A DNA stretch of 34,190 nt from a virus. The stretch lies in the IMG/VR virus record IMGVR_UViG_3300009130_000084, positions 1-34,190 of that record. One strand, 5' to 3'. Positions within the stretch are counted from its first letter, which is position 1. Every line of letters starts with the position of its first letter. Below are positions 7,628 through 34,190 of the stretch, one piece after another. The translations under genes and the position numbers were made by a program. The notes under the pieces are model-generated. The model was not told the DNA's origin and did not search any database. It saw only the letters and a program-made list of their open reading frames with translations.

Positions 7628-9349
7628 TTACACCAAGTCCGCAACAACAACTAGACCGTACATGTCAGGTCTCACCATCTTCTTCGCGTAGCGAGTCATG
7701 ACACCCTTACGGGGCACGAAATCTTCCGGTCCAAAGATTGTGGGCGTGACTTGCAGCGGCACATACGGGGCGTAGACATAGCCGCTTTCGAGGAAGCTTT
7801 GGCCACGACGACCCACGAGAATCAGATTCCGTGGGAAGTAAGGATCTACATGAATGTCCATCTTACGGCTGATCGAGCCAACCTTGTGGACACCCCAACT
7901 ACCCTTGTCATCATCGACGGCTGCCGAAGCACGGAAGCCGCTGGTGAACTCAAGGATATTTGCCACTTCGGGAGAGCAAACAAGGAAGTTTGCGCCACCA
8001 CGCAGGGTCTTACGGTGAATACGAGCACTCACGTCGTTCACACGTTCCAGGCACGTTTCGTACCATTCGGACACGTTACCCGTGAAATCCGGATATTGTG
8101 TCGTGTTCAACAGAGCACCTGTTTCAGCGTTGAGGAACTTGCCTGGGCTACGGCTCCAGTACAATGTACCGGCGGTCGCACCATTGATCAGGTCTGCCAG
8201 AATCTCTTGATCGATTTCAAGAGCAATCTGCTCAGACAAGATGCTTGTCAATTCAACTTCGGCGTCGAGGTTGTGATAAGCATTCAAATCCTGAGCAAGT
8301 TCAGGGCTCCACTTAGCCTTCAGCTTTTTGGTGTTCGCAGTCACCGCCACCGAATCGATCTTAATATCGATCTGGGGAAGGTTCACGTTATTTTCCAACT
8401 GCCACGGCACGGAGCCTATGACAGAACCAATGGCTCCACCCTGTGCCCACGTGTCATCCAGCGGGAAGCGAAGACCGACCAGAGTAGCAGCAGATGTTGC
8501 CAGTGCATTACAGTCTTCACCCGTACTCGTCAAGACCATGCGAAGCACGGTTGTCGAGCTACCAGAGTACTCCGTCAAACGGCGGACTTGGAAGCCACCG
8601 CTATTAAGAGTTCCGTCCGGACCTTCAGTACCCGAAACACAAATGGCAACAAAATCCTTGAGATTCAGCCCAGCCGGTACGGCCGAGGAGAGAATCACAT
8701 AGGGGCTGCCAGTTCCGAGAGCGCCCGAAACAAAAACGGGATCGTCACGAAGGACGTCGAAGAGCGCGCCGCCGGGGCTCGAAGCTGCATCGCCGAACGT
8801 ACCAGAGGCATCAACGGTGACAGCCTGAACGCTCGAACCAGTCGGTCCAGCAAAGCCATTATTGAGGCTGTAAAAGCTGGACTCGCCGAGGCGATTGCTC
8901 AAATCCACACCACCGGTGATCTGTTGACCGACAACACCACCACCATACAGCGAACCGCTAGAACGGTTAGCCAAACGAGCAGTAATACCATTGACGGTCG
9001 TCATTGCGTCCGACCCATCGTATTGGAAGTCGAGGAAGAAGATGAGTCCACTGGGGAGGCTCATCGGTTGGACCGACACAAGGTCCTGGGCCAAAAGGTT
9101 GCCGAAAACACGGCGCACAATTGGGAAAGCAACCGAGGCAAAGCCTTCGACGTCACCAGCAGCCATTGTACTGGTTTCTTTAAGCAGTTGAGCAGCTTGG
9201 TTTTCCAGAAGACGCGACATGTTACTACGAGTAACGTCGTCGAGACCTTCCAAAAGACCGGTCTGTTCCCACTTGCCGAGAAGAGCTTCACCCTCGTTGG
9301 CAAGAGAGCGTGCTCTGATGCCTTCTGTTAGGGTTTCAATTACAGACAT
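7628..9349 (-). CDS. gp23: Major capsid protein, gp23-like
   Basis: A 573-aa HK97-fold capsid protein of the T4 gp23 family (T4: 521 aa). The N-terminal propeptide has LLGKWEQTGLLEGLDD, then MSRLLENQAAQLLKE. The mature domain opens with FPIVRRVFGNLLAQDLVSVQ and PMSLPSGLIFFLDF. Later landmarks are KAKWSPELAQDLNAYHNLDA, LTSILSEQIALEIDQEILAD and, near the end, YVYAPYVPLQ with GVMTRYAKKMVRPDMYG. By analogy to T4 (cleavage after LTE at residue 65), the propeptide should end at L-L-K-E58, directly before TST. This gives the local cleavage rule used to read the effector peptides. AAGGAG precedes the ATG; scaffold gene upstream, terminator downstream. Confidence 0.95.
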   Translation of the reverse strand: MSVIETLTEGIRARSLANEGEALLGKWEQTGLLEGLDDVTRSNMSRLLENQAAQLLKETSTMAAGDVEGFASVAFPIVRRVFGNLLAQDLVSVQPMSLPSGLIFFLDFQYDGSDAMTTVNGITARLANRSSGSLYGGGVVGQQITGGVDLSNRLGESSFYSLNNGFAGPTGSSVQAVTVDASGTFGDAASSPGGALFDVLRDDPVFVSGALGTGSPYVILSSAVPAGLNLKDFVAICVSGTEGPDGTLNSGGFQVRRLTEYSGSSTTVLRMVLTSTGEDCNALATSAATLVGLRFPLDDTWAQGGAIGSVIGSVPWQLENNVNLPQIDIKIDSVAVTANTKKLKAKWSPELAQDLNAYHNLDAEVELTSILSEQIALEIDQEILADLINGATAGTLYWSRSPGKFLNAETGALLNTTQYPDFTGNVSEWYETCLERVNDVSARIHRKTLRGGANFLVCSPEVANILEFTSGFRASAAVDDDKGSWGVHKVGSISRKMDIHVDPYFPRNLILVGRRGQSFLESGYVYAPYVPLQVTPTIFGPEDFVPRKGVMTRYAKKMVRPDMYGLVVVADLV

Positions 9350-11663: not shown

Positions 11664-12680
11664 TTAAACTTGGTACCAAGCAGAGATTGAGGCGGTTGAA
11701 TAGTATACAAAATTGAGTGAGGTCTTTGCGCCAGGCATAAAGAAGTCAGATACGCCAAAAAGATTTCCGGCTATCTGAATAGGAATACTATTAGCGGCAC
11801 CCATATTTCCCTCTACAACCAGAGTCAGTCGTTGTCCGCTTGTGGTTCCGTTCGGGAGGGTTAAAGTGTGAATATCCATTCCCATCATTGCGTCAAAGAC
11901 ACCCGTTATGGAGGCAGCATCCAAAAACATCAAGCTTGAACCAATAGATAAAGTACTGCTGGTTCCGCTCCCCAAATCCTGTGTGGATGGGGTCGTTATA
12001 TAATAGTTGGATTGAGTGGTGCCCTGGACATCTAAGTCAACAGTGGGAGTGTCTGTATTGATCCCTACTCGGTAGTTGTTCGCATCACTCCTTAATATTG
12101 CTGGTTTACTCCCGTCATCACCATTAACAACAAAGTCAACATTATTGGTTCCATTGTTGACTGTGACTTGGTGAGGAGCCGATGCCTTTTGATGCATACC
12201 AAACAGATTGATTCCTCCAGCATTAAATCTTATTCTATCCTCAGTGAAGTTAATGTAAGTGTCGGCATCACCGTTGTGATAAATCTTTTGGTCAACTCCA
12301 ATATTTCCGGCTACATCAAGTTTATAGTCGGGGGAGTCAGTTCCGATGCCCACCTTGCCGTCAGCATCTATCACCATCGCCGGTTGGGCTTCTGCTCCTG
12401 CCTTGAAATCCAGACTGTCGTCACCGTAGTTGTTAAAGATAATCCACTTTCGTGTGCCGTTCTCGTAAAATTCAAGACCGGGATGGCTGTCCGTGTCGCC
12501 GTTTATTTTAATCCTAGCGTCGTCGCCGCTGATTTTAAACGATGTGCCCTCTTGTTCGACGGTTCCGGTAATTTGAAGTACATCGTCGGACGTATTGCCG
12601 AGAATTACTTTTCCGTCGGCAGTTGCTTTGAATCCCCAGGAGCCGTCGGCATCTATGGATCCGTAACCTACTCCAGTCAT
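11664..12680 (-). CDS. Fibre-like structural protein, possible head fibre
   Basis: A 338-aa protein with repeat composition typical of phage fibres: Gly/Asp/Asn-rich, beta-prone segments such as GKVGIGTDSPDYKLDVAGNI (about 109-128) and RVGINTDTPTVDLDVQGTTQ (about 207-226). These are the 'VGIGT.sP...LdV.G' repeats that precede S74 chaperone domains in tail spikes. No S74 domain follows; the protein ends in a hydrophobic beta-rich segment. It starts at a TAATG overlap with the prohead protease stop, with GGAGA 7 nt upstream, so it is translationally coupled to a head gene rather than placed with tail-fibre genes. A head-attached fibre or decoration is inferred from this location; a tail fibre in an atypical place is the alternative. 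Confidence 0.7.
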   Translation of the reverse strand: MTGVGYGSIDADGSWGFKATADGKVILGNTSDDVLQITGTVEQEGTSFKISGDDARIKINGDTDSHPGLEFYENGTRKWIIFNNYGDDSLDFKAGAEAQPAMVIDADGKVGIGTDSPDYKLDVAGNIGVDQKIYHNGDADTYINFTEDRIRFNAGGINLFGMHQKASAPHQVTVNNGTNNVDFVVNGDDGSKPAILRSDANNYRVGINTDTPTVDLDVQGTTQSNYYITTPSTQDLGSGTSSTLSIGSSLMFLDAASITGVFDAMMGMDIHTLTLPNGTTSGQRLTLVVEGNMGAANSIPIQIAGNLFGVSDFFMPGAKTSLNFVYYSTASISAWYQV

Positions 12681-13276
12681 TAGTCGTCTCCGAGTACGTC
12701 GTTAAGGGCTCGATTAATGCGGTCGGCTTTAGTGAGGTGGGTCTTAATTTTATTTTCCGCTACGAGAAAAGCGCCGGCAGTGCTGGGTTCTGAGACAAGA
12801 TCAAAACAAAGAAGCTGAAAGTCATCCTCGACCATCGTTACTCCATTTTCTTGTCGAGTAGAACCCAAGCCACGACTTGAGATACCCAAACAAACACCAC
12901 CCTCGACCAGTTGTTTCGCGATTTGTCCGGCGGGTGTATTGAGGATCTTCATTTTTCCCATCACATCGTTACCATTCCACCATATTTCGGTCATTACATG
13001 CGACGCATTCGAAAGATTAACAACGGCTCGATCAGGATGATCTAATTCCCCGACTGCCCTACCTTCCTTCACAAGTTTGGTATAGTTTTTTATTTCGCGC
13101 TCAAGAATTATCCGAGGATAGACTCGGTTGTTACCGTTTTTAGATTCTGCACATTGAATCTTGCCCGCCACAACGAGATGAAGTCCGGCTTTGTTACCTT
13201 CCTTTTCCTCCTCGGTGAGCAGGGTGTCACTGTAGTCTAATTCCATAAACTCTTGAAGAACATATTTTTCACTCAT
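12680..13276 (-). CDS. gp21: Prohead maturation protease, gp21-like serine protease
   Basis: A 198-aa protein of the T4 gp21 / herpesvirus-assemblin-like protease type (T4: 212 aa). Visible landmarks are NGNNRVYPRIILEREI (about 48-63), the histidine motif GELDHPD (H80) and the serine motif GISSRG (S133/S134), followed by LVSEPST (about 160-166). In T4 the enzyme cleaves after (L/I)-x-E in capsid, scaffold and internal proteins and then itself. This makes it the likely processing enzyme for the N-terminal peptides described elsewhere. AAGGAG lies about 9 nt before the ATG. The gene overlaps the preceding small ORF by 8 nt and the fibre-like gene by 1 nt. Confidence 0.92.
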   Translation of the reverse strand: MSEKYVLQEFMELDYSDTLLTEEEKEGNKAGLHLVVAGKIQCAESKNGNNRVYPRIILEREIKNYTKLVKEGRAVGELDHPDRAVVNLSNASHVMTEIWWNGNDVMGKMKILNTPAGQIAKQLVEGGVCLGISSRGLGSTRQENGVTMVEDDFQLLCFDLVSEPSTAGAFLVAENKIKTHLTKADRINRALNDVLGDD

Positions 13277-20145: not shown

Positions 20146-21279
20146 TTATTTAAGGAACTTCTTTAGTCCCTCAATACGCTTAGAGGGTCGCTTCAGTCCG
20201 CTGACCAACGTATAGGTGACGAGCTTATCCCTCTTATCATCTTCATAAATGCCGCGATGAATGATGGCACCGCCCGTCAAAGCGGCCAGCGTATCAAATC
20301 CAAATTCAATACTATCCATCAACCCTACAGTCTCTTCAAAGATTTCTTCGCCCCCGACTACAATACAGGCTGCGCCCGTCGCAGTGGTCAAATCAAAGCC
20401 CTCTGCCAGCAGAGTTTTCTCCAGATTTTTCTTAAGAGCATTAGAGATAGCTGTTTCACTCTCTACATCTTTGACGCTGGTAACACCCATAATCATGCAC
20501 CCAGACTGTCGCATAATGCTGTCGTAATCGGTAGCATCAAAGGTTGTGTATTCTGAATCCTGATTTGCCAGGACGTTAAAGACGTGGAACAAGCCCGCGA
20601 CTGTATTGTTGATGGTGGTCCAAAACTTCTTCACTGTCAGTTTAGGGTAAAGTTTTTTAATCTTCTCGTTGTCCACCATAATGAGGGGGGCAATCTTCCC
20701 TTTCTCTGCGAGCCCGCAAAGTTGGTTAATGCGATTGTGAGCATTCTTGGCTACCGTGGGGGAAGCCGACTCGCCAGCCGTTGGAAGGGAAGCTATGACG
20801 CCAACCCGCTGGTCCACATCTTCTACACCAATGTAAGTGAAGTACTTTTTGGCGACTTTTATCAGGGTATTAACTGTCCCTCCACCAGAACCACCCGAAA
20901 CCCCAAGGCAAATCATGATGCGATCAACGTTGGTCCCGAAAATTTCACGGAACTTGTTGAACACTTCTTGTTCTTTGCGTTCGATGGCTGCTTCGGCTTT
21001 GGCTTGGTCTTTGCCGGCACCCTGTTCACCATGTTCGTCCACTAAGAACTTTTGCTCGTCGGGAATATCCAATCCATTAAGATCTGAGCGAGCGGTATTC
21101 ACCGCCACCGTCTTGGTATAACCCATGTCGTAAAACGCCTTTGCCATACGACCGCCGCCTTGGCCAGCGCCAACTATAGCATAAGTGAGCGCGCCGCCAG
21201 ACTTATCCTCGACGGTTTCCTGCTCTTCATTTAAGTCGGGATCATAGTCCTCGATTTCAAGTGTAGGAATGTCTACCAT
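20146..21279 (-). CDS. FtsZ/tubulin-superfamily GTPase
   Basis: A 377-aa protein with the tubulin/FtsZ nucleotide-binding plan. After a 30-residue acidic N-terminus come AIVGAGQGGGRMAKAF (about 34-49), VAVNTARSDLNGL (about 58-70, like FtsZ 'VNTD.q.L'), the GTP signature LGVSGGSGGGTV (about 125-136), and a likely T7 loop FDATDYDSIM (about 247-256) with acidic residues D248, D251 and D253. Phage tubulins (PhuZ, TubZ) polymerise to move or position DNA or capsids; bacterial FtsZ drives division. Which applies is unknown. It is among late genes upstream of the terminase block, behind TAAGGAG. No long C-terminal FtsA/ZipA-binding tail is evident. Confidence 0.8.
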   Translation of the reverse strand: MVDIPTLEIEDYDPDLNEEQETVEDKSGGALTYAIVGAGQGGGRMAKAFYDMGYTKTVAVNTARSDLNGLDIPDEQKFLVDEHGEQGAGKDQAKAEAAIERKEQEVFNKFREIFGTNVDRIMICLGVSGGSGGGTVNTLIKVAKKYFTYIGVEDVDQRVGVIASLPTAGESASPTVAKNAHNRINQLCGLAEKGKIAPLIMVDNEKIKKLYPKLTVKKFWTTINNTVAGLFHVFNVLANQDSEYTTFDATDYDSIMRQSGCMIMGVTSVKDVESETAISNALKKNLEKTLLAEGFDLTTATGAACIVVGGEEIFEETVGLMDSIEFGFDTLAALTGGAIIHRGIYEDDKRDKLVTYTLVSGLKRPSKRIEGLKKFLK

Positions 21280-23267: not shown

Positions 23268-23492
23268 TTATATCTCACATTCACACTCTTTTATTTTGTT
23301 CCGACGATTTCTGACTCTACACAAAGGGCACCGAATATAATGTGAATCACTTTCATAAAACATAGCCCAAAGTCTGGGAACCCTCAACGCTATTCTCCAC
23401 GGTCCAATAAACCACAGGATACAACACCGAGGTATATTAGAATGTCGTCCGCACTCCCAGTGGTATTTTATTTTATTGAGATACGAAAGCAT
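23268..23492 (-). CDS. Small Cys-rich putative zinc protein
   Basis: A 74-aa protein (ATG at 23492; in-frame ATGs at 23498 and 23516 are alternatives). It contains YHWECGRHSNIPRCCILWFI (about 11-30), then YIRCPLCR (about 55-62) and a final CEC. The 'CGR.S.IP.CCI.WF' pattern is, from memory, typical of a small uncharacterised phage/bacterial family with an apparent membrane-seeking Trp-rich segment and a CxxC zinc site. It overlaps the end of the SbcCD-like gene by 20 nt and precedes the cytochrome gene. The Cys and His could bind zinc. Function unknown. Confidence 0.55.
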   Translation of the reverse strand: MLSYLNKIKYHWECGRHSNIPRCCILWFIGPWRIALRVPRLWAMFYESDSHYIRCPLCRVRNRRNKIKECECEI

Positions 23493-26400
23493 ACCCATCT
23501 TGACGCTCAATGTCAATGGTCATATCGGCAATATCTTTGAGACTATCCAAGTGAGTAATCAAAAGCACAGTCTTGTAGTAGCCCTTAATCATTTCCATCA
23601 CTCGCATAAAGCCTTCAAGGTTTTCGGCGTCCAATGCTGTGCCTGGCTCATCCATAATCATAATGTCAGATTTTGGTAGGGTTGAGACGTTGGTTAGGGC
23701 GATGCGGATGGCGATGGCTGCAAGCGTTTTCTCTGCGCCGGAAGCCATCTCTAAAGGTCGTGCTTCGTACTTGGGGTGCTTGATGAAAATATCTAATTTG
23801 TTTTTTTCTGCCTCGAAAAACACCTCAAAGTCGGTGACGTTGGAAAGTACCGTGCTGATTTCCTCGTTGATGAGGGGGAGCATCCGCTTGACCACATCAT
23901 AGCTGATTCCGTTGGGGTGGCAACAACGCATAAATAAGTCGTAGGCCGCATACTCGGTTCGCAGGTCTTCAAGTTCCTGCTTCTTGTCTTCAATATTGGC
24001 AATCTGGGTTTCAATCCCGCCGTGTTGTTTTACAAGGTCGAGCACCTTGGCTTCGCAGATAGCAATGTCGCTCTCCATTTTGAGGGCTTTTTCCTTCAAG
24101 TCGTCCTGCTCTGTGATAAGTCCCTCTCGGTTCTCAATCGCTTCCTTGTTGAGTTCATAGACTTCAATCTTGGTTTTGATGCTTGCCATCTCGTTGGTGA
24201 GAAGATGGAGTTTGTTTTTGGTTTGCGCTAGAAGTAAGTCAAGGTTGGTTGCCTCGGTACAGAGGTCCGCGTATTCCTTATCTCTGTCTTTATAAAGTTG
24301 GTTAGCTGCCTCCAGTGCACTTACATCCAGCCCCTCAAGAGTGGTGAATAATTGAGAGCGGCGGCGTCGCCACACCATCAAAGTCCGGCGCACGTCCGCA
24401 AGAAGTTCCTTAGCCTCGTAAGCGTCCTTAATATATTTACGCAATCCGCAATCAGGACCACAAGGCACCTCTTCCAAGACAGCCAATTTCTTCTCATAGG
24501 TCTCTTTATTACGTTCTTCAAGGACTATTTGACTTTCTAAGGTAGAAAGCTCGTTCTGTATTTCTTCGCAGTGAGTAAGCTTCGTGCGAAGGGAGGTCAC
24601 ATCAGTATCCTCCAGAAGCTTCTTTAAGGTTGCCGCCTGAGATAGTACATCTTTCTTTTGGTTTTTGGTTTGGGCTTCCTTCAAATTAAGGGAGGAGTAT
24701 TCTTGTTTCGCTTTCTCCAAGCGACGAGACTCTTTGGTGATATTGATAATTTCAACTGGGGCTGAAGCAAACTGATCTTCGATCTCTTTAATCCGAAGAT
24801 TAATAGAAGACAAGTCGTTAGTGAAAGTGGTGCACTTCTTTTCTTGCTTCTTTCGCGCCTTATCATTATCGGACAGTTCTTGATGAAGTTGCGTAATATC
24901 TTCCTCAAAAGTATTTCCCTCTAATTTTCTTAACAGGGCACGAGTCTCTATACTGTCATTCTTGGAGGCTCGGAATTTCTTCTCAAACTGGTCAAGGTCT
25001 AAAAATTTGGCGAGGATTTCTTTACGCTTAGTTGAGCCCTCGTTGATAAAAGTCATCGCACCCATTTGACTGGACATGCTCGTCAACAAGAAATCCTCAA
25101 TACTCCCAAAAACTTTACGGATGGCTTTGTCTGTGCCGTTCCGGTCCAGCGAATTCATGCTGGTCTCTTCTTCTGTCGCTGGGTCGTAAATTGTAAATTC
25201 TACATCGGTCTTGGCTTCAAGGGTTTCTTCCCCATGAAGTTTCTTGGTGTATTTCTCTGAGTTCCGTTCGATGATGTAGGTCTTGCCGGCAATCTCGATC
25301 TCGGCTCGTCCGCAACCGGACGGCTTATTCTGGTTGATAATGTTCAGATTCTTACGATTGTTTTTGCTAATTGAATTATATACCGTATAAAGCATACTGT
25401 CAACAACAGAACTCTTGCCTGAGTAGTTCTTTCCGAAGACGCCGACGACGCCATTCAACTTATCAAAATTGATCGTGTTGCCCTCACCGTAATTGAAGAG
25501 GTTGTCCCACTCCAACTTTTTCAAGGACCACTCTACATTGCGGAGTCCAGCATCTTCGCCGTTTACGGTGGAGTCATACTTAGAATTAAGTTGAAATACT
25601 TTTTCTAATGTCTTATCGTCGGGTTCATACTCTTTTAAGTATTCCCGAATTAATCGCTCTTGAACTGCGGGGTCTCGTAGGTTCTCTGTGTTGCCGAGGT
25701 CGTCTACGTTTACGCTGTCTCGTTTTAGTCCCGCTTTATTGACGAATGAAAGGCTTTCAGGCTTGAACCGGCTCTTGGCTATATCCATCACTCGGCGGAT
25801 TTTATCAAGGGAAACCTTGTGATGAGTTACCACACGAAGCCGGGCCCCTTCTGGAATGTTTACTTTGCGAGGGAGATTTCCCTTCTCCGTCATCTCAATC
25901 GTCATAAAGGGCTTGACGTTTTTCACAAGGTGGTGCTCCACCGTGAAGTGAGTCTTGCTTTTAATATCCCAAATCAAGAAGCCCTTGTCGTTTGTTTCGC
26001 CGTGGTTTTGCTGAATGGTAGATCCGCAATAGCGAATCGTTCCGCTCTCGTTTAGGACTTGATTAGTCTTGTGAATGTCGCCGAGCATCGCATAATCAAA
26101 CTTATCAAACACCTTAATGTCGTGGTCGCCGTAGTCCATCACCCACCCAAGGTCGGTTTGACTATTATTAATTGCTCCGTGATAAAGAGCGATGTTGATA
26201 GCCTCTGTGTCTGTCGGGTCTGTCCAATTGGTCTCATCAAAGATTGACAAAACGTTTAGAGTCAGGTCATCTTCTAACTGGACCTCTCCTGAATACTTGT
26301 GTAGGATTAGGCTTGGGTGGTTGAGTGCTTCCACAATCGGAGTGATGGCATCTTGCCGACTACTGTTGCGTAGGTTACCGTCGTGATTGCCCAGGATGAT

Positions 26401-26625
26401 GTGAGTCTCGGCGATGTCAGCCAAGTTCTTTAGGAACTCAGTGGCTAATTCAAAATACTCTGGCGAGAGTTGTGTTTTTGTGTGAGCCAAATCGCCAGTG
26501 TGGACGATATAGTCTACCTTCTGTGCCCGCAGGGTCTTATAAATCTCCTCAAATGCTTTTCTATATTCATAGTGATATTTCAGATTTTTGATATGGGTAT
26601 CCCCGAAATGTGCAATCCGCACCAT
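23473..26625 (-). CDS. Fused Mre11/SbcD nuclease - Rad50/SbcC ATPase (gp47-gp46 fusion)
   Basis: A 1050-aa polypeptide joining two normally separate proteins. Residues 1-220 carry metallophosphoesterase motifs: GDTH (8-11), GDLAHT (44-49), GNHDG (79-83), H149 (YHG) and GDIHKT (182-187). Residues 366-1045 are an SMC-type ATPase: Walker A GKNYSGKS (398-405), coiled coils (about 545-715 and 735-895), ABC signature ASGAEKT (961-967), Walker B DIMIMDE (987-993), D-loop ALDA and H-loop H1025. T4 gp47 and gp46 resect DNA ends for recombination-dependent replication. The hook region is CGPDC (722-726), so three rather than the usual two residues separate the Cys. AAGGAG lies 8 nt before the ATG. Confidence 0.93.
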   Translation of the reverse strand: MVRIAHFGDTHIKNLKYHYEYRKAFEEIYKTLRAQKVDYIVHTGDLAHTKTQLSPEYFELATEFLKNLADIAETHIILGNHDGNLRNSSRQDAITPIVEALNHPSLILHKYSGEVQLEDDLTLNVLSIFDETNWTDPTDTEAINIALYHGAINNSQTDLGWVMDYGDHDIKVFDKFDYAMLGDIHKTNQVLNESGTIRYCGSTIQQNHGETNDKGFLIWDIKSKTHFTVEHHLVKNVKPFMTIEMTEKGNLPRKVNIPEGARLRVVTHHKVSLDKIRRVMDIAKSRFKPESLSFVNKAGLKRDSVNVDDLGNTENLRDPAVQERLIREYLKEYEPDDKTLEKVFQLNSKYDSTVNGEDAGLRNVEWSLKKLEWDNLFNYGEGNTINFDKLNGVVGVFGKNYSGKSSVVDSMLYTVYNSISKNNRKNLNIINQNKPSGCGRAEIEIAGKTYIIERNSEKYTKKLHGEETLEAKTDVEFTIYDPATEEETSMNSLDRNGTDKAIRKVFGSIEDFLLTSMSSQMGAMTFINEGSTKRKEILAKFLDLDQFEKKFRASKNDSIETRALLRKLEGNTFEEDITQLHQELSDNDKARKKQEKKCTTFTNDLSSINLRIKEIEDQFASAPVEIINITKESRRLEKAKQEYSSLNLKEAQTKNQKKDVLSQAATLKKLLEDTDVTSLRTKLTHCEEIQNELSTLESQIVLEERNKETYEKKLAVLEEVPCGPDCGLRKYIKDAYEAKELLADVRRTLMVWRRRRSQLFTTLEGLDVSALEAANQLYKDRDKEYADLCTEATNLDLLLAQTKNKLHLLTNEMASIKTKIEVYELNKEAIENREGLITEQDDLKEKALKMESDIAICEAKVLDLVKQHGGIETQIANIEDKKQELEDLRTEYAAYDLFMRCCHPNGISYDVVKRMLPLINEEISTVLSNVTDFEVFFEAEKNKLDIFIKHPKYEARPLEMASGAEKTLAAIAIRIALTNVSTLPKSDIMIMDEPGTALDAENLEGFMRVMEMIKGYYKTVLLITHLDSLKDIADMTIDIERQDGYAFVSQ

Positions 26626-28947: not shown

Positions 28948-29751
28948 TTAAATCCCCGCAAGTCTCAAAACATCTGATGTTATTGCTAAAACGAAGATTC
29001 CGAGCACCATAACGGCACCAATAATATTTAGTACGTTGCGAGTCTTTACAGCCAATTTTTTCCGTCTTATTCCTTCGACTACAGAAATGCCGATATGTCC
29101 ACCATCTAATACTGGGATTGGTAGTAAGTTAATTACACCGAGATTGATGGAGAAAAAGGCAATCCAATCTATTAAGAATCCCCAGTCTCCTGTGTCTGCG
29201 CTGCGTTTTCTTGCTTGTTCCGTAAATTCATAAACGGCTACAGGTCCGCCCACTTCTTTAATAGACATAGGCTCTTTGCGAGGCATTGTTGCGGCTTCCC
29301 AAATGCTGCTATACATCTTCACCGATATTTTATGAGAGTAGCCAGCCGCTTCCATTACGCCGATGCGGTGGGGGATAGCTCCCTCTGGCACATAAACATC
29401 AGGGTATGGCTGCCCGACCAAGAGCATAAAATATAATGGCCACGGCAACAACAAATTAAACACCGGACCCATCACCGCTATGAAGGCTCGCTTCCATGCC
29501 GACACCGACCAAAAAGATTCGGGGTCATTTTTCTTGTTGTGATAATCATCTTCGCCACGAGGTTTGATGTAGCCGCCAAGAGGTATGAGCGACAAACGCC
29601 ACTCAGTTCCCCATAGTTTCTTCTTAAGGAGGACTTTCCCGAACCCTATTGAAAAACTATCAACGGCGACGCCCATTGCTCGGGCTGCGACATAATGTCC
29701 CAGTTCATGAACAAAAATTACTAAAACAATTATTCCAAGAAAGGTAAGCAT
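28948..29751 (-). CDS. M50 / site-2-type intramembrane metalloprotease
   Basis: A 267-aa membrane protease; the ATG at 29751 has GGAGG about 8 nt upstream (a TTG at 29769 is possible). The zinc motif HELGH (H15, E16, H19) lies in the first TM helix and the third ligand motif NLLPIPVLDGG (N208-G218, D216) in a later one; AVMGPVFNLLLPWPLYFMLL is another TM. E. coli RseP (about 450 aa) has two PDZ domains; here only about 40 residues (YPDVYVPEGAIPHRIGVM) lie in that place. Cellular S2P enzymes cut membrane-bound anti-sigma factors or signal-peptide remnants. A role in altering the host envelope stress response or maturing phage membrane proteins is inference. Confidence 0.88.
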   Translation of the reverse strand: MLTFLGIIVLVIFVHELGHYVAARAMGVAVDSFSIGFGKVLLKKKLWGTEWRLSLIPLGGYIKPRGEDDYHNKKNDPESFWSVSAWKRAFIAVMGPVFNLLLPWPLYFMLLVGQPYPDVYVPEGAIPHRIGVMEAAGYSHKISVKMYSSIWEAATMPRKEPMSIKEVGGPVAVYEFTEQARKRSADTGDWGFLIDWIAFFSINLGVINLLPIPVLDGGHIGISVVEGIRRKKLAVKTRNVLNIIGAVMVLGIFVLAITSDVLRLAGI

Positions 29752-30236
29752 AGGTTGCCCTCCTGACAAACGTTTGTGGATTGTGGCATGTGGTGTGGGA
29801 GTTGGTAATCCCTGAATAATATATTAGGACCCTTGGACCAGGCATCGTCTTCTTCGAATATTTTACACCTTTCGGCGGCTCTTCTTTGGGCGTCCATCGG
29901 AGTCCAGAGTTGCAGGTAGTTGTGTATCTTTTTATTTTCTTCCCGCAGTTTTTGCATCTCCGTGCTCTGGGCTTTAATGGTAGTCTCTAGGCTGTAGATT
30001 GCTTGACTGGCAGCCTTTTCCAGCCGTTCCTCTATATGGCTCTCATTCACGACATACAAAAGGAGACCCATAAAAATAGTACAAACAACAGCCGCCACGA
30101 CCGAAGTCCAAACGACTGCTGAAAGATAGTTAGTCTTAATCTTGGTAGCAGGCGGAGTGCTATAGTCCTGCGTGTATTGGACAGAGTTCCGTGCGTTTTC
30201 TCTGATTCTGTGGAATGCGTCCCTTTCTCGGCTCAT
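29730..30236 (-). CDS. Single-TM coiled-coil membrane protein
   Basis: A 168-aa protein with a cytosolic basic N-terminus of about 40 residues, one TM helix (VVWTSVVAAVVCTIFMGLLL, about 41-60), a coiled coil (EERLEKAASQAIYSLETTIK; AQSTEMQKLREENKKIHNYL) and a C-terminal region with three Cys (about 123, 157, 162) that would be periplasmic and could form a disulfide. The topology is spanin-like, but the globular Cys-containing end is unusual for spanins. The gene overlaps the protease start by 22 nt, so the two are probably coupled and could be substrate or partner. There is no visible SD; an ACTATTTACT box sits 2 nt before the ATG. Confidence 0.6.
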   Translation of the reverse strand: MSRERDAFHRIRENARNSVQYTQDYSTPPATKIKTNYLSAVVWTSVVAAVVCTIFMGLLLYVVNESHIEERLEKAASQAIYSLETTIKAQSTEMQKLREENKKIHNYLQLWTPMDAQRRAAERCKIFEEDDAWSKGPNILFRDYQLPHHMPQSTNVCQEGNLCLPFLE

Positions 30237-30270: not shown

Positions 30271-30591
30271 TCATCGCCTTATAAACCTCAAATCACCATC
30301 AGTATTGGCTATCTGGCTTGGTTTGGCTTCAAAGTCTTCACCAACATAGCGATATTCCCCTGGGTTGTCTGCCTCTTGTATATCGTCTTCATCTACAAAC
30401 GCATAAACTACATAGAAGTCCTCGTCATTATAGATTGCCGAAGTAACAGCGTGTTCGCCAGCAAACCTGCGGGACAAAGTTACATAATCATTATTCCTAA
30501 TAACTTTTGTGAAAGCAGGTTGTGCTCGGAAGATTTTTACCTTCTTCCCTTCTTTCAAAAACTTCCGCCACTCTGTTAGTAGTTTTTTCAT
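30271..30591 (-). CDS. Signal-cassette protein with small ART-like domain
   Basis: A 106-aa protein: residues 1-14 are the cassette peptide MKKLLTEWRKFLKE, followed by GKK. The rest (about 18-100) reads VKIFRAQPAFTKVIRNNDYV, TLSRRFAGEHAVTSAIYNDE and later NPGEYRYVG. An Arg in an early strand (R22), a 'DYVTLSrrFAgeHA' segment and a late Glu (E79) resemble small ADP-ribosyltransferase-like folds (the 'R-S-E' plan), though I cannot confirm an active site. T4 packages ADP-ribosyltransferase Alt in its head, which makes the idea attractive. If processed after L-K-E14, a domain of about 92 residues would be delivered. Confidence 0.6.
   Translation of the reverse strand: MKKLLTEWRKFLKEGKKVKIFRAQPAFTKVIRNNDYVTLSRRFAGEHAVTSAIYNDEDFYVVYAFVDEDDIQEADNPGEYRYVGEDFEAKPSQIANTDGDLRFIRR
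30551..30591 (-). repeat. Signal-cassette DNA repeat, copy 1
   Basis: A 41-nt segment ending at the ATG and encoding MKKLLTEWRKFLKE minus its last base. Used as the reference copy, it matches copies 2-5 at 38, 40, 38 and 33 of 41 positions, counted by eye. It lies at the start of a gene whose downstream part is unrelated to the other carriers. Confidence 0.85.
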
Positions 30592-31016
30592 TGTTCCATC
30601 ACCATGGTGATCACCATTATTGGGTTTCCGCCACTATCTTTGCCGACAACCTCAAAGCCATATCCTTCATACCAATCTACTAGACTGAAACCTTCTGCTT
30701 GGCTTTGTCCCAAGTCGGCTATGAGTATTGTAGTGTAAGCACCCGCATCAGCGGCTTGGCTCATAAAGTCTTCAACCAATTGGTTCCCAACACCTTGTCC
30801 TCTGTTTTCTTCGGGGACAAAAGCATTTTTCATTATAGCAACAGGTAGTTCAAGGTTTTGTATCACCTCTTCACTAACACCTTCTTTGTTCGCCCAGTTC
30901 ATTAGCCGGTCGATATTGCTATGAATAACACCACCGATAGTAGCACCTTCTATATCAATTGATATTTCTTGGGCTTCTTTCAAAAACTTCCGCCACTCTG
31001 TTAGTAGTTGCTTCAC
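30588..31016 (-). CDS. Signal-cassette protein with GNAT acetyltransferase domain
   Basis: A 142-aa protein starting with GTG (31016): cassette peptide MKQLLTEWRKFLKE, then AQE. The rest is a compact GNAT domain: LPVAIMKNAFVPEENRGQGV (about 57-76) with the acetyl-CoA loop R-G-Q-G-V-G (72-77), helix NQLVEDFMSQAADAG, and WYEGYGFEVVG (115-125), the usual 'fYek.GFe..g' end. GNAT enzymes acetylate amines on proteins or small molecules; some toxins acetylate aminoacyl-tRNA. The target here is unknown. It overlaps the ART-like gene by 4 nt. L-K-E followed by A fits the T4 prohead protease consensus exactly. Confidence 0.8.
   Translation of the reverse strand: MKQLLTEWRKFLKEAQEISIDIEGATIGGVIHSNIDRLMNWANKEGVSEEVIQNLELPVAIMKNAFVPEENRGQGVGNQLVEDFMSQAADAGAYTTILIADLGQSQAEGFSLVDWYEGYGFEVVGKDSGGNPIMVITMVMEQ
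30976..31016 (-). repeat. Signal-cassette DNA repeat, copy 2
   Basis: Identical to copy 1 at 38 of 41 positions, including third codon positions across the centre. The differences are at the 5' end, where ATG is replaced by GTG. Confidence 0.85.
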
Positions 31017-31412
31017 CTAATAAACCTCTGTGTATTTGTCCGCAAATGGTTCGGTATCAAATTGTTCTGCCGCTGCGTCAAATATAATTTCTGAACCATT
31101 ATCATTAATAACGATCCAGTCGTGGACGACGCCATCGCCGCCATCATCGAACAAACCATCTCTTACATCTCGGGCATCAAACCCAGCGTCGGATAAGGCT
31201 TTTAGCCAGAAGTCAGTATTCGCATCGCAGGAATCAAGCGGACGACCTATGTCGCACAAATACTGCTGTGATTGTTCATAGTTATCCGCTATTGCTTTGG
31301 CTAACTTAGGCGATGGGTTTTGAGATAGCCATATGGATTTCATCCACTTAGGTTGCCCGTCACCCTCTTTCAAATACTTCCGCCACTCTGTTAGTAGTTT
31401 TTTCATTTTCAT
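31017..31412 (-). CDS. Signal-cassette protein with possible transglutaminase/papain-like fold
   Basis: A 131-aa protein beginning MKMKKLLTEWRKYLKE, then GDG (ATG at 31412; the ATG at 31406 gives the standard cassette start). The domain has CDANTDFWLKALSDAGFDAR (C62 onward), VHDWIVIND (H97) and EIIFDAAAEQFD (D112). A Cys before a helix, then His-x-Trp and 'fDa.a.QF', is the order of Cys-His-Asp triads in transglutaminase-like and related cysteine peptidase folds. C53 is a second Cys that could be catalytic or structural. The assignment is by pattern only. It abuts the GNAT gene without a gap and overlaps the upstream gene by 4 nt. Confidence 0.6.
   Translation of the reverse strand: MKMKKLLTEWRKYLKEGDGQPKWMKSIWLSQNPSPKLAKAIADNYEQSQQYLCDIGRPLDSCDANTDFWLKALSDAGFDARDVRDGLFDDGGDGVVHDWIVINDNGSEIIFDAAAEQFDTEPFADKYTEVY
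31366..31406 (-). repeat. Signal-cassette DNA repeat, copy 3
   Basis: Matches copy 1 at 40 of 41 positions; the single change converts the Phe of RKFLKE to Tyr. The gene's first ATG lies 6 nt further upstream. Confidence 0.85.
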
Positions 31413-31867
31413 CTAACAGAATCCTGGGGGTTACCTGTTAAATTTGCTAAAGATATATGAAAAATTCTTTCAGGTTCAGGGTCTGTGTTTTTCTCACCGA
31501 GGAGTTCCATAACCTGCCGCACGTAGTCTCGCATCTCATCTTGGTTTTCTAACTCAACAGCCCAAGACATTTTTCCTTCATCCGTTTTTACCTGAATTTC
31601 TTTATCGAAGTCAATGATCGGCTCAGGGGCGTCAGGAAGTTCCATCTTTTTTATTTGTTTCCGATGAGGTTTTAAGATACTTTGATGAACCAGAGTTACG
31701 TGTAAAGCCTTTTCAGGTAAACTTATTGCATTGGGATCCCCTATTTCCTCCTGTAGTCCCTGAATCTGCTGAACCAAGTCCGGATTTAGCTTTACTTTAA
31801 GAATGCCGCTGTATTTAGCTTCGGCTTCCTTCAAAAAGTTTCGCCACTCTGTTAGTAGTTTTTTCAT
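31409..31867 (-). CDS. Signal-cassette protein with 2H phosphoesterase domain
   Basis: A 152-aa protein: cassette peptide MKKLLTEWRNFLKE, then AEAKYSG. The body has two H-x-T/S motifs about 80 residues apart, LHVTLVH (H56, T58) and RIFHISLANLTG (H137, S139), the hallmark of 2H phosphoesterases (LigT, CPDase, AKAP7). Members cleave 2',3'-cyclic phosphates or cyclic oligonucleotides. The T4 anti-CBASS nuclease Acb1 belongs to this superfamily and destroys cyclic-nucleotide alarm signals. A packaged enzyme of this kind could act at once after injection. Substrate unknown. L-K-E followed by A fits the protease consensus. Confidence 0.75.
   Translation of the reverse strand: MKKLLTEWRNFLKEAEAKYSGILKVKLNPDLVQQIQGLQEEIGDPNAISLPEKALHVTLVHQSILKPHRKQIKKMELPDAPEPIIDFDKEIQVKTDEGKMSWAVELENQDEMRDYVRQVMELLGEKNTDPEPERIFHISLANLTGNPQDSVR
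31827..31867 (-). repeat. Signal-cassette DNA repeat, copy 4
   Basis: Matches copy 1 at 38 of 41 positions. The first 25 coding bases from the ATG are identical to copies 1 and 3. The gene starts in a TAATG junction with the preceding stop. Confidence 0.85.
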
Positions 31868-32208
31868 TAGCTGACCTTTTCAAGTCCGCCCAAGTATCTC
31901 ACTTTTTTGACGCCTGGCACTGTTTTGATTTTATGGAGAAGTTTCTTTGCTCCTGACTTCGGGCTTTCCAGTTTTTCGGGGATAAACTTGATTATTATTT
32001 CCGAAAAATAATCTGAGTCGTTTTCTTCCGCTGTGTCTGGTTCTTGCTTGAGTGTGACTATTTCCGCAATAGCTCGAATCTCTGAGAAGGTCTGGCTCTT
32101 GTCACCGCCAACATCCTTGGAGATAACCAACGATGCACGGAACTCGTGCATTCTTTCGTCATAATCTTCTTTCAGAAACTTTCGCCATTCGTTGATTAGC
32201 TTTTTCAT
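31867..32208 (-). CDS. Signal-cassette protein with ferredoxin-like unknown domain
   Basis: A 113-aa protein: diverged cassette peptide MKKLINEWRKFLKE, then DYDERMHE. The domain reads FRASLVISKDVGGDKSQTFS, EIRAIAEIVTLKQ, an acidic loop, EIIIKFIPEKLESPKSGAKK and a final helix/strand (LLHKIKTVPGVKKVRYLGG). The strand-helix-strand pattern with 'i..ipGVk.V.yl' suggests a ferredoxin-like fold; from memory it is a common unassigned family in aquatic phages. P1' after L-K-E is Asp, less favourable than Ala/Gly in T4. No catalytic residues evident. It overlaps the NUDIX/ART gene by 4 nt. Confidence 0.65.
   Translation of the reverse strand: MKKLINEWRKFLKEDYDERMHEFRASLVISKDVGGDKSQTFSEIRAIAEIVTLKQEPDTAEENDSDYFSEIIIKFIPEKLESPKSGAKKLLHKIKTVPGVKKVRYLGGLEKVS
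32168..32208 (-). repeat. Signal-cassette DNA repeat, copy 5 (diverged)
   Basis: Matches copy 1 at about 33 of 41 positions while keeping EWRKFLKE, so it is the oldest or most drifted copy. Both synonymous and conservative changes are present. Confidence 0.75.
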
Positions 32209-34151
32209 TCTTCTTCATCCTCATACCATTCGGGATACTCAAAAACGCCCTGACCCAAAGTGTCCTTTGTCTCTATATAGATGGCAGCTTCCTCTGGGGT
32301 CGCTTCCATATACTCTCCCAAGCGAGCGTCATACATTTCCGAGGTGCTCATAGTCTCTTCTGCGTTCATCAAAATGTCGTAGGCAAAAATAGCAGAGGCC
32401 GGAACTCTTCCCTTGTAACCATAGACGCCCACTTCACGAGACAAAGAAAAACTATCAGTGTCTAAGTTGCCAGCCTGGCGACTTCTCAGGGTGTGACAAA
32501 TATAATCATAACAACCTGTATCGCCTGCTCCCATATCTACATCATAGTCGGGAATCAATAGGTCAGGATCCGGAACCTTAAGATTCACTATGACAGGATC
32601 TCCTCCGACTTTGCCGGCTGTATGCACAGCGTGGTGCTGAGCTTCTTCCATTCGCGAAGAAAAGAAAACGGCGTTGGGGTGAGATATGCCTTCGTAGTTA
32701 GTCTTAGATTCTCCGGGTACCAATCCAAACTTTAAAATGTTTTCAAGATAGTTGCTAGTCGTGCCGTGATACATTACATCAGCAACTTTTCCCCTGGCTC
32801 CATAAAAAGGAACTTCTTCTTCGTCGCCCCAATTGTAATCGGCTGGATAGACGATTTTACGAGCGCCAAGCTCTTTAACTACTTTCTTAACAAGGATTGA
32901 AGATTTGGGGTCTAACTTAAAACTTCCAATCTGCTCTATGTGTAAAGTCCTTCCACCTTCAAGAAGTGAGCCAAATAAAACATCCATACGGTTTTCATTG
33001 TCAAGTTCGTCCTTGAGATCATAGTATCCTTCCCACTCTGCCTCTATTCCAATTGAGTCATTGATATCGTCACGGACTTCATCGGAAGGAATATCTCCCA
33101 TACGCCAGATGTTTTCTCTGTAAGCGACAATGTTATCGCCGTCGGGGTCTCCTTTGACGAACATCTCAGAAATTATTTTATTTTCCACGATCCTTATCTG
33201 AACATCATAATTGTGGAACTGTTCTAACTCTTCTGCCTCTTCTGAGAAGGCCCAGCGTTCGATATCTTCTGGGAATATACCTGTCACTTGAACTTCAACA
33301 TCAGTATCCCGATCTTCAGGATCTCTGACGAAGCCATACTTTTCCATATCATGGGCTATTTGTTCCTCGCGAGATAACGCAGAGGAGCCAATCCTCTGAA
33401 TATCTCTAATCTCTGCTTCTGGAAAAAAGTCTTGAATTTGTTGTTGAATGAAGTCTTGCCAGTTTTCGGAAATTATTCGGTGTTCCGACAAAGGTATATC
33501 TTCCATAGCTGTCAAAATAGCATCTTTATATTTTGGTGTCAGATTATCATAGCCTGGGATCTCTTGGATGTCAACCATTTTATACTCAGTGTGTTCTGGG
33601 CTTAATCTAATCTTTCCTTCCGGAAGGCTTGTGATATAGAATGTCTCATGCTTGTAAGGGTAAAGTTCATTTACCTCGCCGATCACCAGCCCAGTTTCTT
33701 CTTCTACTTCCCGCCGAAGTCCGACTTCTTTATCTTCACCCACATGAATATGTCCACCCGGCAAATCCCACTTGTTAGGAAAATTCTCGTGCAGATCTGA
33801 TCGTTTGATAAGCAAAACTCGTCGTCCATCTTGAATGACCACCTTTGTTACCTCTGGGCTATCTTCCTGCTTTTCTCCAATGGCGACCTTGATCTGTTCG
33901 CCAATCATACCTTTTAACAATTGAGAAAAATCTTGGCTTTCGTTTTTCCCGAACAATTGTTTATTCCAGTCGTTGGCTTCTTGGTCTTGTGTTTCCCACT
34001 CTTTTGGCTCTTTTGCTTTTGATTTCGTCATTGGCTTCTTTTTGTAAGCACCTTGAGCAGTCAGGTATCCTTCAATTGCACTGCCCTGGCTGTGCCTCAG
34101 ATCATACTCGGGCTTATCTTTTATGCTTTCATAAAGATCTCGAAGATACAT
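32205..34151 (-). CDS. Multidomain NUDIX hydrolase / ART-like protein
   Basis: A protein of at least 648 aa. Residues about 97-215 form a NUDIX domain with a complete box from G133 to L155 (GGHIHVGEDKEVGLRREVEE is its first part), preceded by FPNKWDLPG. Residues about 240-320 include IGSSALS and DTDVEVQV, which might be a nucleotidyltransferase-like domain (low confidence). Residues about 455-600 look ART/KptA-like: VMYHGTTSNYLENILKFGLV, AVFFSSRMEEAQHHA and REVGVYGYKGRVPASAI. NUDIX enzymes can hydrolyse ADP-ribose or NAD, so pairing with an ART suggests NAD/ADP-ribose chemistry. The ATG at 34151 lacks a nearby SD and the frame stays open to the window edge (13 more codons, ending GKVSPKFL), so the true start may lie outside. 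Confidence 0.75.
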   Translation of the reverse strand: MYLRDLYESIKDKPEYDLRHSQGSAIEGYLTAQGAYKKKPMTKSKAKEPKEWETQDQEANDWNKQLFGKNESQDFSQLLKGMIGEQIKVAIGEKQEDSPEVTKVVIQDGRRVLLIKRSDLHENFPNKWDLPGGHIHVGEDKEVGLRREVEEETGLVIGEVNELYPYKHETFYITSLPEGKIRLSPEHTEYKMVDIQEIPGYDNLTPKYKDAILTAMEDIPLSEHRIISENWQDFIQQQIQDFFPEAEIRDIQRIGSSALSREEQIAHDMEKYGFVRDPEDRDTDVEVQVTGIFPEDIERWAFSEEAEELEQFHNYDVQIRIVENKIISEMFVKGDPDGDNIVAYRENIWRMGDIPSDEVRDDINDSIGIEAEWEGYYDLKDELDNENRMDVLFGSLLEGGRTLHIEQIGSFKLDPKSSILVKKVVKELGARKIVYPADYNWGDEEEVPFYGARGKVADVMYHGTTSNYLENILKFGLVPGESKTNYEGISHPNAVFFSSRMEEAQHHAVHTAGKVGGDPVIVNLKVPDPDLLIPDYDVDMGAGDTGCYDYICHTLRSRQAGNLDTDSFSLSREVGVYGYKGRVPASAIFAYDILMNAEETMSTSEMYDARLGEYMEATPEEAAIYIETKDTLGQGVFEYPEWYEDEEE

Positions 34152-34190
34152 TAAAAATTTCGGACTTACTTTTCCTCGCTTAGTCCCAGT

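What the first reader, a model, noticed from the sequence alone, without database searches (positions are those of the whole stretch)
32205..34190. NUDIX plus ART-like fusion heading the effector operon
Seen: a perfect NUDIX box at residues 133-155 and an HGT...VFFSS...GRVPASAI ART/KptA-like region at about 460-590 in one protein, with a possible nucleotidyltransferase-like segment between. Known: T4 Alt is a packaged ART; NUDIX enzymes act on ADP-ribose, NAD or nucleotide caps. Inference: a composite effector acting on NAD/ADP-ribose or RNA ends, for example attaching or removing groups, or countering NAD-depleting defence.
Basis: partly seen in the sequence, partly recalled or inferred. Interest (0 to 1): 0.7.

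Follow-up and report, generated by a model that had tools for sequence, protein, structure and literature searches.

The report
Phage packaged-enzyme polyprotein with leader-like linkers
A virus of bacteria appears to make several host-attacking enzymes (a NUDIX hydrolase, a small unknown domain and an ADP-ribosyltransferase) as one long chain whose joints carry the same cut signal as its individually packaged proteins, so the capsid protease could snip the chain into separate enzymes before they are injected.

Summary
ORF 32205-34190(-) carries an intact NUDIX box (Pfam E=7e-16) and a C-terminal ART fold: an AlphaFold2 model (pLDDT 80) matches Tpt1/KptA best (Z 11.3, 2.2 A over 95 residues). 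The middle "nucleotidyltransferase" is unproven.

The fusion is more than a two-domain enzyme. Homology to a 1,871-aa ORF in a related phage begins upstream of the first ATG, so the window holds only the C-terminal end of a larger chain. Relatives carry the same ART either alone, directly behind a short leader, or fused behind other modules. The residues before the ART are [L/I]-x-E, the published T4 gp21 prohead-protease site, in 13 of 15 homologues. In the window every module joint has two such sites. In two related phages the linkers are decayed copies of their own N-terminal leaders. A gp21-type protease gene lies in the same contig.

Best reading (~0.65): the end of a polyprotein of packaged effectors, cut in trans by the prohead protease and injected with the DNA. 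This is a new variant of the known "polyvalent proteins", which were proposed to be processed by embedded metallopeptidases. No proteomics supports it yet.

The parts
32205..34190 (-). C-terminal part of an effector polyprotein ORF; 661 codons in frame, open at the contig edge; first ATG at 34151
   Evidence: frame homologous to L011 ORF (1871 aa) from upstream of the ATG
33867..33926 (-). linker before NUDIX, residues 76-95, with IGE-85 and IGE-93 sites
   Evidence: aligned to L011 linker KSLLKNMIME, itself a leader-like match
33507..33866 (-). NUDIX module, residues ~96-215, intact NUDIX box 133-155
   Evidence: PF00293 6.7e-16; L011 module 53% identical over the aligned stretch
33465..33488 (-). 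joint LSE|HRIISE| (sites at residues 223 and 229)
   Evidence: L011 has LSE|NKIISE| at the NUDIX-ART joint
33183..33464 (-). middle module ~230-323, alpha/beta, GSS and DTDVEV motifs; identity uncertain
   Evidence: no family or homologue found; single-sequence model pLDDT 58
33165..33188 (-). joint IVE|NKIISE| directly before the ART module (sites 323 and 329)
   Evidence: [LI]xE at this column in 13 of 15 homologues
32208..33164 (-). ART module, residues 330-648; H462, VFF 495-497, E573, GYKGR 578-582; belongs to the KVP40.0290 / phrog_11974 family
   Evidence: phrog_11974 1.8e-32; AF2 m5c09116de9b2 pLDDT 80; Tpt1 Z 11.3
31867..32208 (-). leader-bearing small protein (MKKLINEWRKFLKE|)
31409..31867 (-). 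leader-bearing 2H-phosphoesterase-like protein (HVTL, HISL)
31017..31412 (-). leader-bearing protein, weak papain-like toxin fold hit
   Evidence: PF15645 E=0.014
30588..31016 (-). leader-bearing GNAT acetyltransferase
   Evidence: PF13508 3.5e-5
30271..30591 (-). leader-bearing small protein, 102/106 identical to a neighbour of the L011 polyprotein
12680..13276 (-). T4 gp21-type head maturation protease, the proposed processing enzyme
   Evidence: phrog_207 9.2e-53;
7628..9349 (-). major head protein with an L-K-E site at E58 (T4 gp23 loses a 65-residue propeptide, PMC5694885)
   Evidence: phrog_138 1.4e-68; site position

Best explanation
The ORF is the C-terminal end of a polyprotein of virion-packaged effectors. 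A T4-type leader (capsid-targeting sequence) brings the chain into the prohead core. The phage's gp21-type prohead protease cuts it after [L/I]-x-E at the joints, freeing NUDIX (~94-229), a small middle module (~230-329) and ART (330-648). They are injected with the DNA. The ART, of the H-class Tpt1/KptA-like lineage, uses NAD+ to modify a host target; the NUDIX hydrolyses an ADP-ribose or nucleoside-diphosphate-X compound, possibly clearing ADP-ribose left by the ART or by NAD-depleting host defences. Shown: the domains, the ART fold (predicted model), the continuing ORF, conserved joint sites, leader-like linkers in relatives, and a protease gene in the same contig. Inferred: packaging, cleavage, injection, substrates.
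For: L011 (178-kb phage) has an 1871-aa ORF starting with a class-1 leader (MKDLLHSWNQYL), then modules, NUDIX and an ART 58% identical to the window's, with no middle module. L012 has a 695-aa ORF with the leader copy QSLRNIIKEVKSSLNE directly before ART and another at its C-terminus. L020/L021 has 1128 aa: ART-NUDIX-ART-others, joints KIAKLNKVA, KIASLHKIA, KIAKLHKLA, with KITSLHKIA at the N-terminus of a separate ART-like protein in that phage. Standalone ARTs start right after a leader, e.g. L013 MKLLMESWRRYLNE|, KVP40 MKNLKSFMEELQSLNE|; [LI]xE at that column in 13/15. Leader score: the four best hits not near an ORF start, bar one at position 44, are linkers of L011 and L012. Leader identity is 0.80 up to the E and 0.07 after it across 13 proteins. 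Each of three window joints has two [LI]xE sites; 0 of 20,000 shuffles match. T4 gp21 cuts L/I-X-E and 10-residue CTSs suffice for packaging (PMC9026906). gp21 homologue E=9e-53 in the contig. ART fold. NUDIX and ART are adjacent genes in SCTP-2.
Against: No virion proteome or cleavage data. The joint windows for the shuffle test were chosen after seeing the sites, and the leader model was trained on the same phages' N-terminal leaders. The window's own NUDIX linker scores poorly as a leader (1.35 bits); only the cut tripeptides remain. Other [LI]xE sites lie inside the modules (122, 159, 178, 197, 398, 613), so the motif alone does not mark borders. The L021 joints end in KIA, not [LI]xE, and no gp21 homologue was found there, so its processing enzyme is unknown. 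Leader retention could be a passive relic of recent gene fusion. The Tyr of the classic H-Y-E triad is Phe here, and the Glu is absent in KVP40-type relatives.
Confidence: 0.65

Rival explanations
1. An uncleaved polyvalent protein: the fused domains are packaged and injected as one multi-domain effector, like those of Iyer et al. 2017, and work tethered together.
For: Architecture (ART with other enzyme domains) matches polyvalent proteins, some of which are transferred unprocessed (PMC5512222). NUDIX-ART co-occurrence recurs.
Against: Conserved [LI]xE at the ART border in standalone and fused copies, paired sites at each joint and leader copies as linkers are not expected if the chain stays whole. 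No HExxH metallopeptidase is embedded.
Confidence: 0.2
2. Leader remnants are passive scars: neighbouring packaged-effector genes fused by loss of stop codons, without functional cutting at the joints.
For: Leader-bearing genes sit head to tail in this operon and in L011, which is the raw material for such fusions; linkers are partly decayed.
Against: The tripeptide is kept at the ART border in homologues as low as 24-28% identical; a different leader type (KIA) fills the joints in another phage.
Confidence: 0.15
3. One reading: a single composite enzyme acting on NAD/ADP-ribose or RNA ends, for example RNA 2'-phosphate or cap chemistry.
For: ART lobe is closest to Tpt1/KptA; NUDIX enzymes can act on capped RNA or ADP-ribose.
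Against: The domains occur separately and in different orders in relatives; the Tpt1 RNA-binding N-lobe is not matched and KptA models stay far under their cut-offs.
Confidence: 0.1
4. Assembly artefact: unrelated genes joined in a metagenome contig.
For: All polyprotein examples come from uncultivated contigs.
Against: NUDIX-ART fusion recurs in L011 with the same joint; L020 and L021 are the same ORF in two separate metagenome assemblies.
Confidence: 0.02

Closest known systems
Polyvalent proteins (Iyer et al. 2017, PMC5512222)
   Same: Large phage proteins joining ART, NTase and other enzyme domains, predicted to be packaged and injected
   Different: There, release is proposed by embedded zincin or C-terminal assemblin-like peptidases; here no HExxH is present and the joints look like the phage's own leader / prohead-protease sites, so cutting would be in trans
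T4 internal proteins and Alt with capsid-targeting sequences (PMC9026906)
   Same: Short N-terminal leader ending in [L/I]-x-E, gp21-type protease, host-acting cargo including an ART
   Different: T4 cargo is one protein per gene; Alt is an R-S-E ART, this one is H-class
KVP40.0290 / phrog_11974 family
   Same: Same ART module (window residues 323-614; 30-32% identity), also behind a leader ending LNE
   Different: Standalone in Vibrio phages; the E573 equivalent is R or K there
Packaged phage Nudix domains fused to head proteins (PMC9503650; L063 here)
   Same: NUDIX tied to the head: relative L063 is fused to DUF2213
   Different: Here fused to an ART through a cleavable-looking joint rather than to a head protein
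Tpt1/KptA RNA 2'-phosphotransferase
   Same: Nearest solved fold for the ART lobe (Z 11.3)
   Different: RNA-binding N-lobe not matched; no family-level sequence match

Membership tests
Nudix hydrolase superfamily | NUDIX box GX5EX7REUXEEXGU and family profile match | tested here: met
   Perfect box 133-155; PF00293 59 bits vs cut-off 21.1
Nudix hydrolase superfamily | Hydrolysis of a nucleoside diphosphate-X compound | not testable with these tools
   needs an enzyme assay
ADP-ribosyltransferase (ART) superfamily | ART fold | tested here: met
   AF2 pLDDT 80; ART toxins, DarT and Tpt1 are the top Foldseek hits; Tpt1 Z 11.3 over 95 residues
ART, H-Y-E class | H, Y and E active-site residues | tested here: inconclusive
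   H462 invariant; Tyr position is Phe; Glu573 present in window, L011, L012, L013, L014, L021 but D/H/R/K in others; residue equivalence from sequence only
Tpt1/KptA | Family-level profile match | tested here: not met
   NF002014 14.7 bits vs cut-off 239
Tpt1/KptA | N-terminal RNA-binding lobe | tested here: inconclusive
   alignment begins at model residue 82 / chain residue ~60
T4 Alt/ModA/ModB (R-S-E) | R-S-E active site | tested here: not met
   First motif is invariant HGT; no Alt family hit in Pfam or PHROGs
T4-type prohead-protease substrate / CTS cargo | [L/I]-x-E cut sites at the borders | tested here: met
T4-type prohead-protease substrate / CTS cargo | gp21-type protease in the same phage | tested here: met
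   phrog_207 9.2e-53
T4-type prohead-protease substrate / CTS cargo | N-terminal leader on this protein | not testable with these tools
   N-terminus lies beyond the contig; the L011 homologue has one
T4-type prohead-protease substrate / CTS cargo | Found in virions in cleaved form | not testable with these tools
   needs virion proteomics
Polyvalent proteins | Several domains of unrelated activity in one chain | tested here: met
   NUDIX + ART here; more in L011 and L021
Polyvalent proteins | Embedded processing peptidase (common, not universal) | tested here: not met
   no HExxH or HExxxH in the four chains; other peptidase classes not specifically sought
Pol-beta nucleotidyltransferase (middle module) | GS...D-x-D/E motif with NTase fold | tested here: inconclusive
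   GSS-255 and DTDVEV-282 present; no profile hit; model pLDDT 58 with no significant match

The most novel reading that the evidence does not exclude
Some T4-like and jumbo phages make their injected enzymes as true polyproteins, with internal copies of the capsid-targeting leader at the joints cut in trans by the capsid maturation protease: a bacteriophage counterpart of RNA-virus polyproteins in which packaging and processing use one signal.
Probability: 0.55. Interest if true: 0.78.

Novelty: new variant of a known kind. Interest (0 to 1): 0.64.

Why it matters
If the joints are cut, leader-like linkers become a sequence signature for finding packaged effectors and for splitting 'multi-domain' phage proteins correctly, which changes how fused domains such as NUDIX-ART should be read (separate enzymes, not one reaction). 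It would also explain how phages add cargo modularly by gene fusion. The KVP40 family, with cultured phages, makes the ART half testable now: KVP40.0290 is predicted to be a packaged ART with its leader cut at LNE.

Tried and rejected
Whole-protein and C-terminal single-sequence scans of viral contigs found nothing; only alignment queries worked. The middle module has no homologue in phages or viral contigs and its low-confidence model gave no significant fold match; scattered nucleotidyltransferase rows there are not evidence. No relative in genome contigs. A strict leader regex in the L021 phage found only the polyprotein; a scored search then found further copies. Considered and set aside: KptA function, T4 Alt membership, toxin-antitoxin (neighbours are leader-bearing cargo, not an antitoxin pair; not specifically tested), assembly artefact. 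My reading of the last L021 module as HsdS-like was not supported by Pfam but was by PADLOC. No paper describing leader-type joints or KVP40.0290 in virions was found in the searches made; that library lacks most subscription papers and preprints.

Full report
What is there. The window is a 34,190-base IMG/VR virus record with a T4-type head and tail module on the minus strand: terminase, portal, head maturation protease, major head protein and tail sheath by PHROGs. The finding is the ORF 32205-34190(-). Its NUDIX box is perfect and the domain passes the Pfam cut-off with E=6.7e-16. Residues 323-614 belong to phrog_11974, the family of KVP40.0290, in which one member was annotated as a poly(ADP-ribose) polymerase.

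ART fold. Sequence hits to PARP and KptA models were weak. An AlphaFold2 model of residues 330-648, built on 11 aligned sequences, has mean pLDDT 80. Foldseek's best solved structures are ARTs, and VIA-align ranks Tpt1/KptA first with Z 11.3, 2.2 A over 95 residues. Active-site residues: H462 is invariant, the Tyr position is Phe, and a Glu (E573) sits where PARP-like enzymes carry theirs, in the window and its nearer relatives only (equivalence judged from sequence). Activity is therefore likely but not certain.

The gene is longer than the window. The nearest relative, in a 178-kb phage (L011), is one ORF of 1871 aa whose end matches the window: ART 58% identical, and 44% over the stretch that holds the NUDIX. 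The match begins upstream of the window's first ATG, and that ATG has no clear Shine-Dalgarno, so the window holds the C-terminal part of a bigger chain.

Modules move independently. The ART is a standalone gene in L013, L014, L017, L027, Vibrio phages and Salicola phage SCTP-2. In SCTP-2 a NUDIX gene follows it. In L012 it follows a different N-terminal region. In L020/L021 a 1128-aa ORF carries ART-NUDIX-ART and further modules; PARP and NUDIX both pass Pfam cut-offs there. The window has an extra middle module between NUDIX and ART that L011 lacks, and the joint IISE is present on both sides of it.

Leaders and joints. Standalone proteins in this operon start with MKKLLTEWRKFLKE or MKITKSQLRKIIKE. 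Across 13 proteins with the first type, pairwise identity is 0.80 over the last ten leader residues and 0.07 over the 30 residues that follow: a shared leader on mostly unrelated proteins. T4 gp21 cuts after L/I-X-E and a ten-residue leader is enough for packaging (PMC9026906). A gp21-type protease gene is in the contig, and the major head protein has an LKE at residue 58, near T4's processing position, since T4 gp23 loses a 65-residue propeptide (PMC5694885). At the start of the ART module, [LI]xE is present in 13 of 15 homologues, fused or standalone. In the window each joint carries two such sites (85/93, 223/229, 323/329); no shuffle of 20,000 did, although the joint windows were set after seeing them. 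A score matrix made from N-terminal leaders, run over about 163,000 positions, gave as its best hits away from ORF starts the linkers of L011 (before module 2 and before NUDIX) and L012 (before ART and at the C-terminus), with one other hit at position 44 of a 275-aa ORF. In L021 the joints have a different sequence, KIAxLHKIA, and that sequence also starts a separate ART-like protein of the same phage. The joint thus tracks the phage's own leader. That phage has no gp21 homologue that phrog_207 detects, so its cutter is unknown.

Interpretation. The simplest account is that packaged-effector genes, each with a leader, fused head to tail, and the cut site was kept so that the prohead protease can separate the products. 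The known neighbours of this idea are polyvalent proteins, which were proposed to be processed by embedded peptidases (PMC5512222), and packaged phage ART and Nudix proteins (PMC9503650). I found no HExxH in the four chains. Packaging, cutting, injection and substrates remain inferred. NUDIX relatives L063-L065 were found in other phages; L063 is confirmed fused to DUF2213, which fits a head association.

Limits. The middle module is unidentified. The evidence is sequence-based, from few and mostly uncultivated phages, and some statistics are post hoc. A passive-relic origin of the linkers is not excluded.

Noticed in passing
20146-21279 (-): TubZ/FtsZ-like tubulin gene next to the head genes (PF00091 2.3e-9, PF22453 3.2e-8); possibly a phage cytoskeleton protein.
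   Followed up: partly
31409-31867 (-): Leader-bearing 2H-phosphoesterase-like protein (HVTL at 56, HISL at 137): could be a packaged enzyme against cyclic-nucleotide or ADP-ribose signals.
   Followed up: no
23473-26625 (-): One 1050-aa ORF matching both SbcD-like and SbcC-like families, i.e. a nuclease-ATPase fusion.
   Followed up: no
L021:8357-11740, last module: The L021 chain ends in a stretch resembling a type I restriction specificity subunit (PADLOC 4.8e-4), which might be an injected anti-restriction decoy.
   Followed up: partly
G006:C1:246682-250125 (-): A second long ORF (1148 aa) in the L021 phage with an internal leader copy QIEKLHKVA at 326 behind an ART-like YHAT region: a second candidate polyprotein.
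   Followed up: partly
30271-30591 (-) and L011:12059-12379: 102 of 106 residues identical, far above the 58% of the neighbouring ART, suggesting recent exchange of cargo genes.
   Followed up: no
L063-L065: NUDIX relatives; in L063 fused to DUF2213, which I take to be a head-protease-type domain.
   Followed up: partly
28948-29769 (-): M50 site-2-type membrane peptidase (PF02163 1.2e-57) in a phage late region.
   Followed up: no
G006: A second recurrent N-terminal motif resembling LIKLATHLDERGLVKEADYL among that phage's ORFs, function unknown.
   Followed up: no
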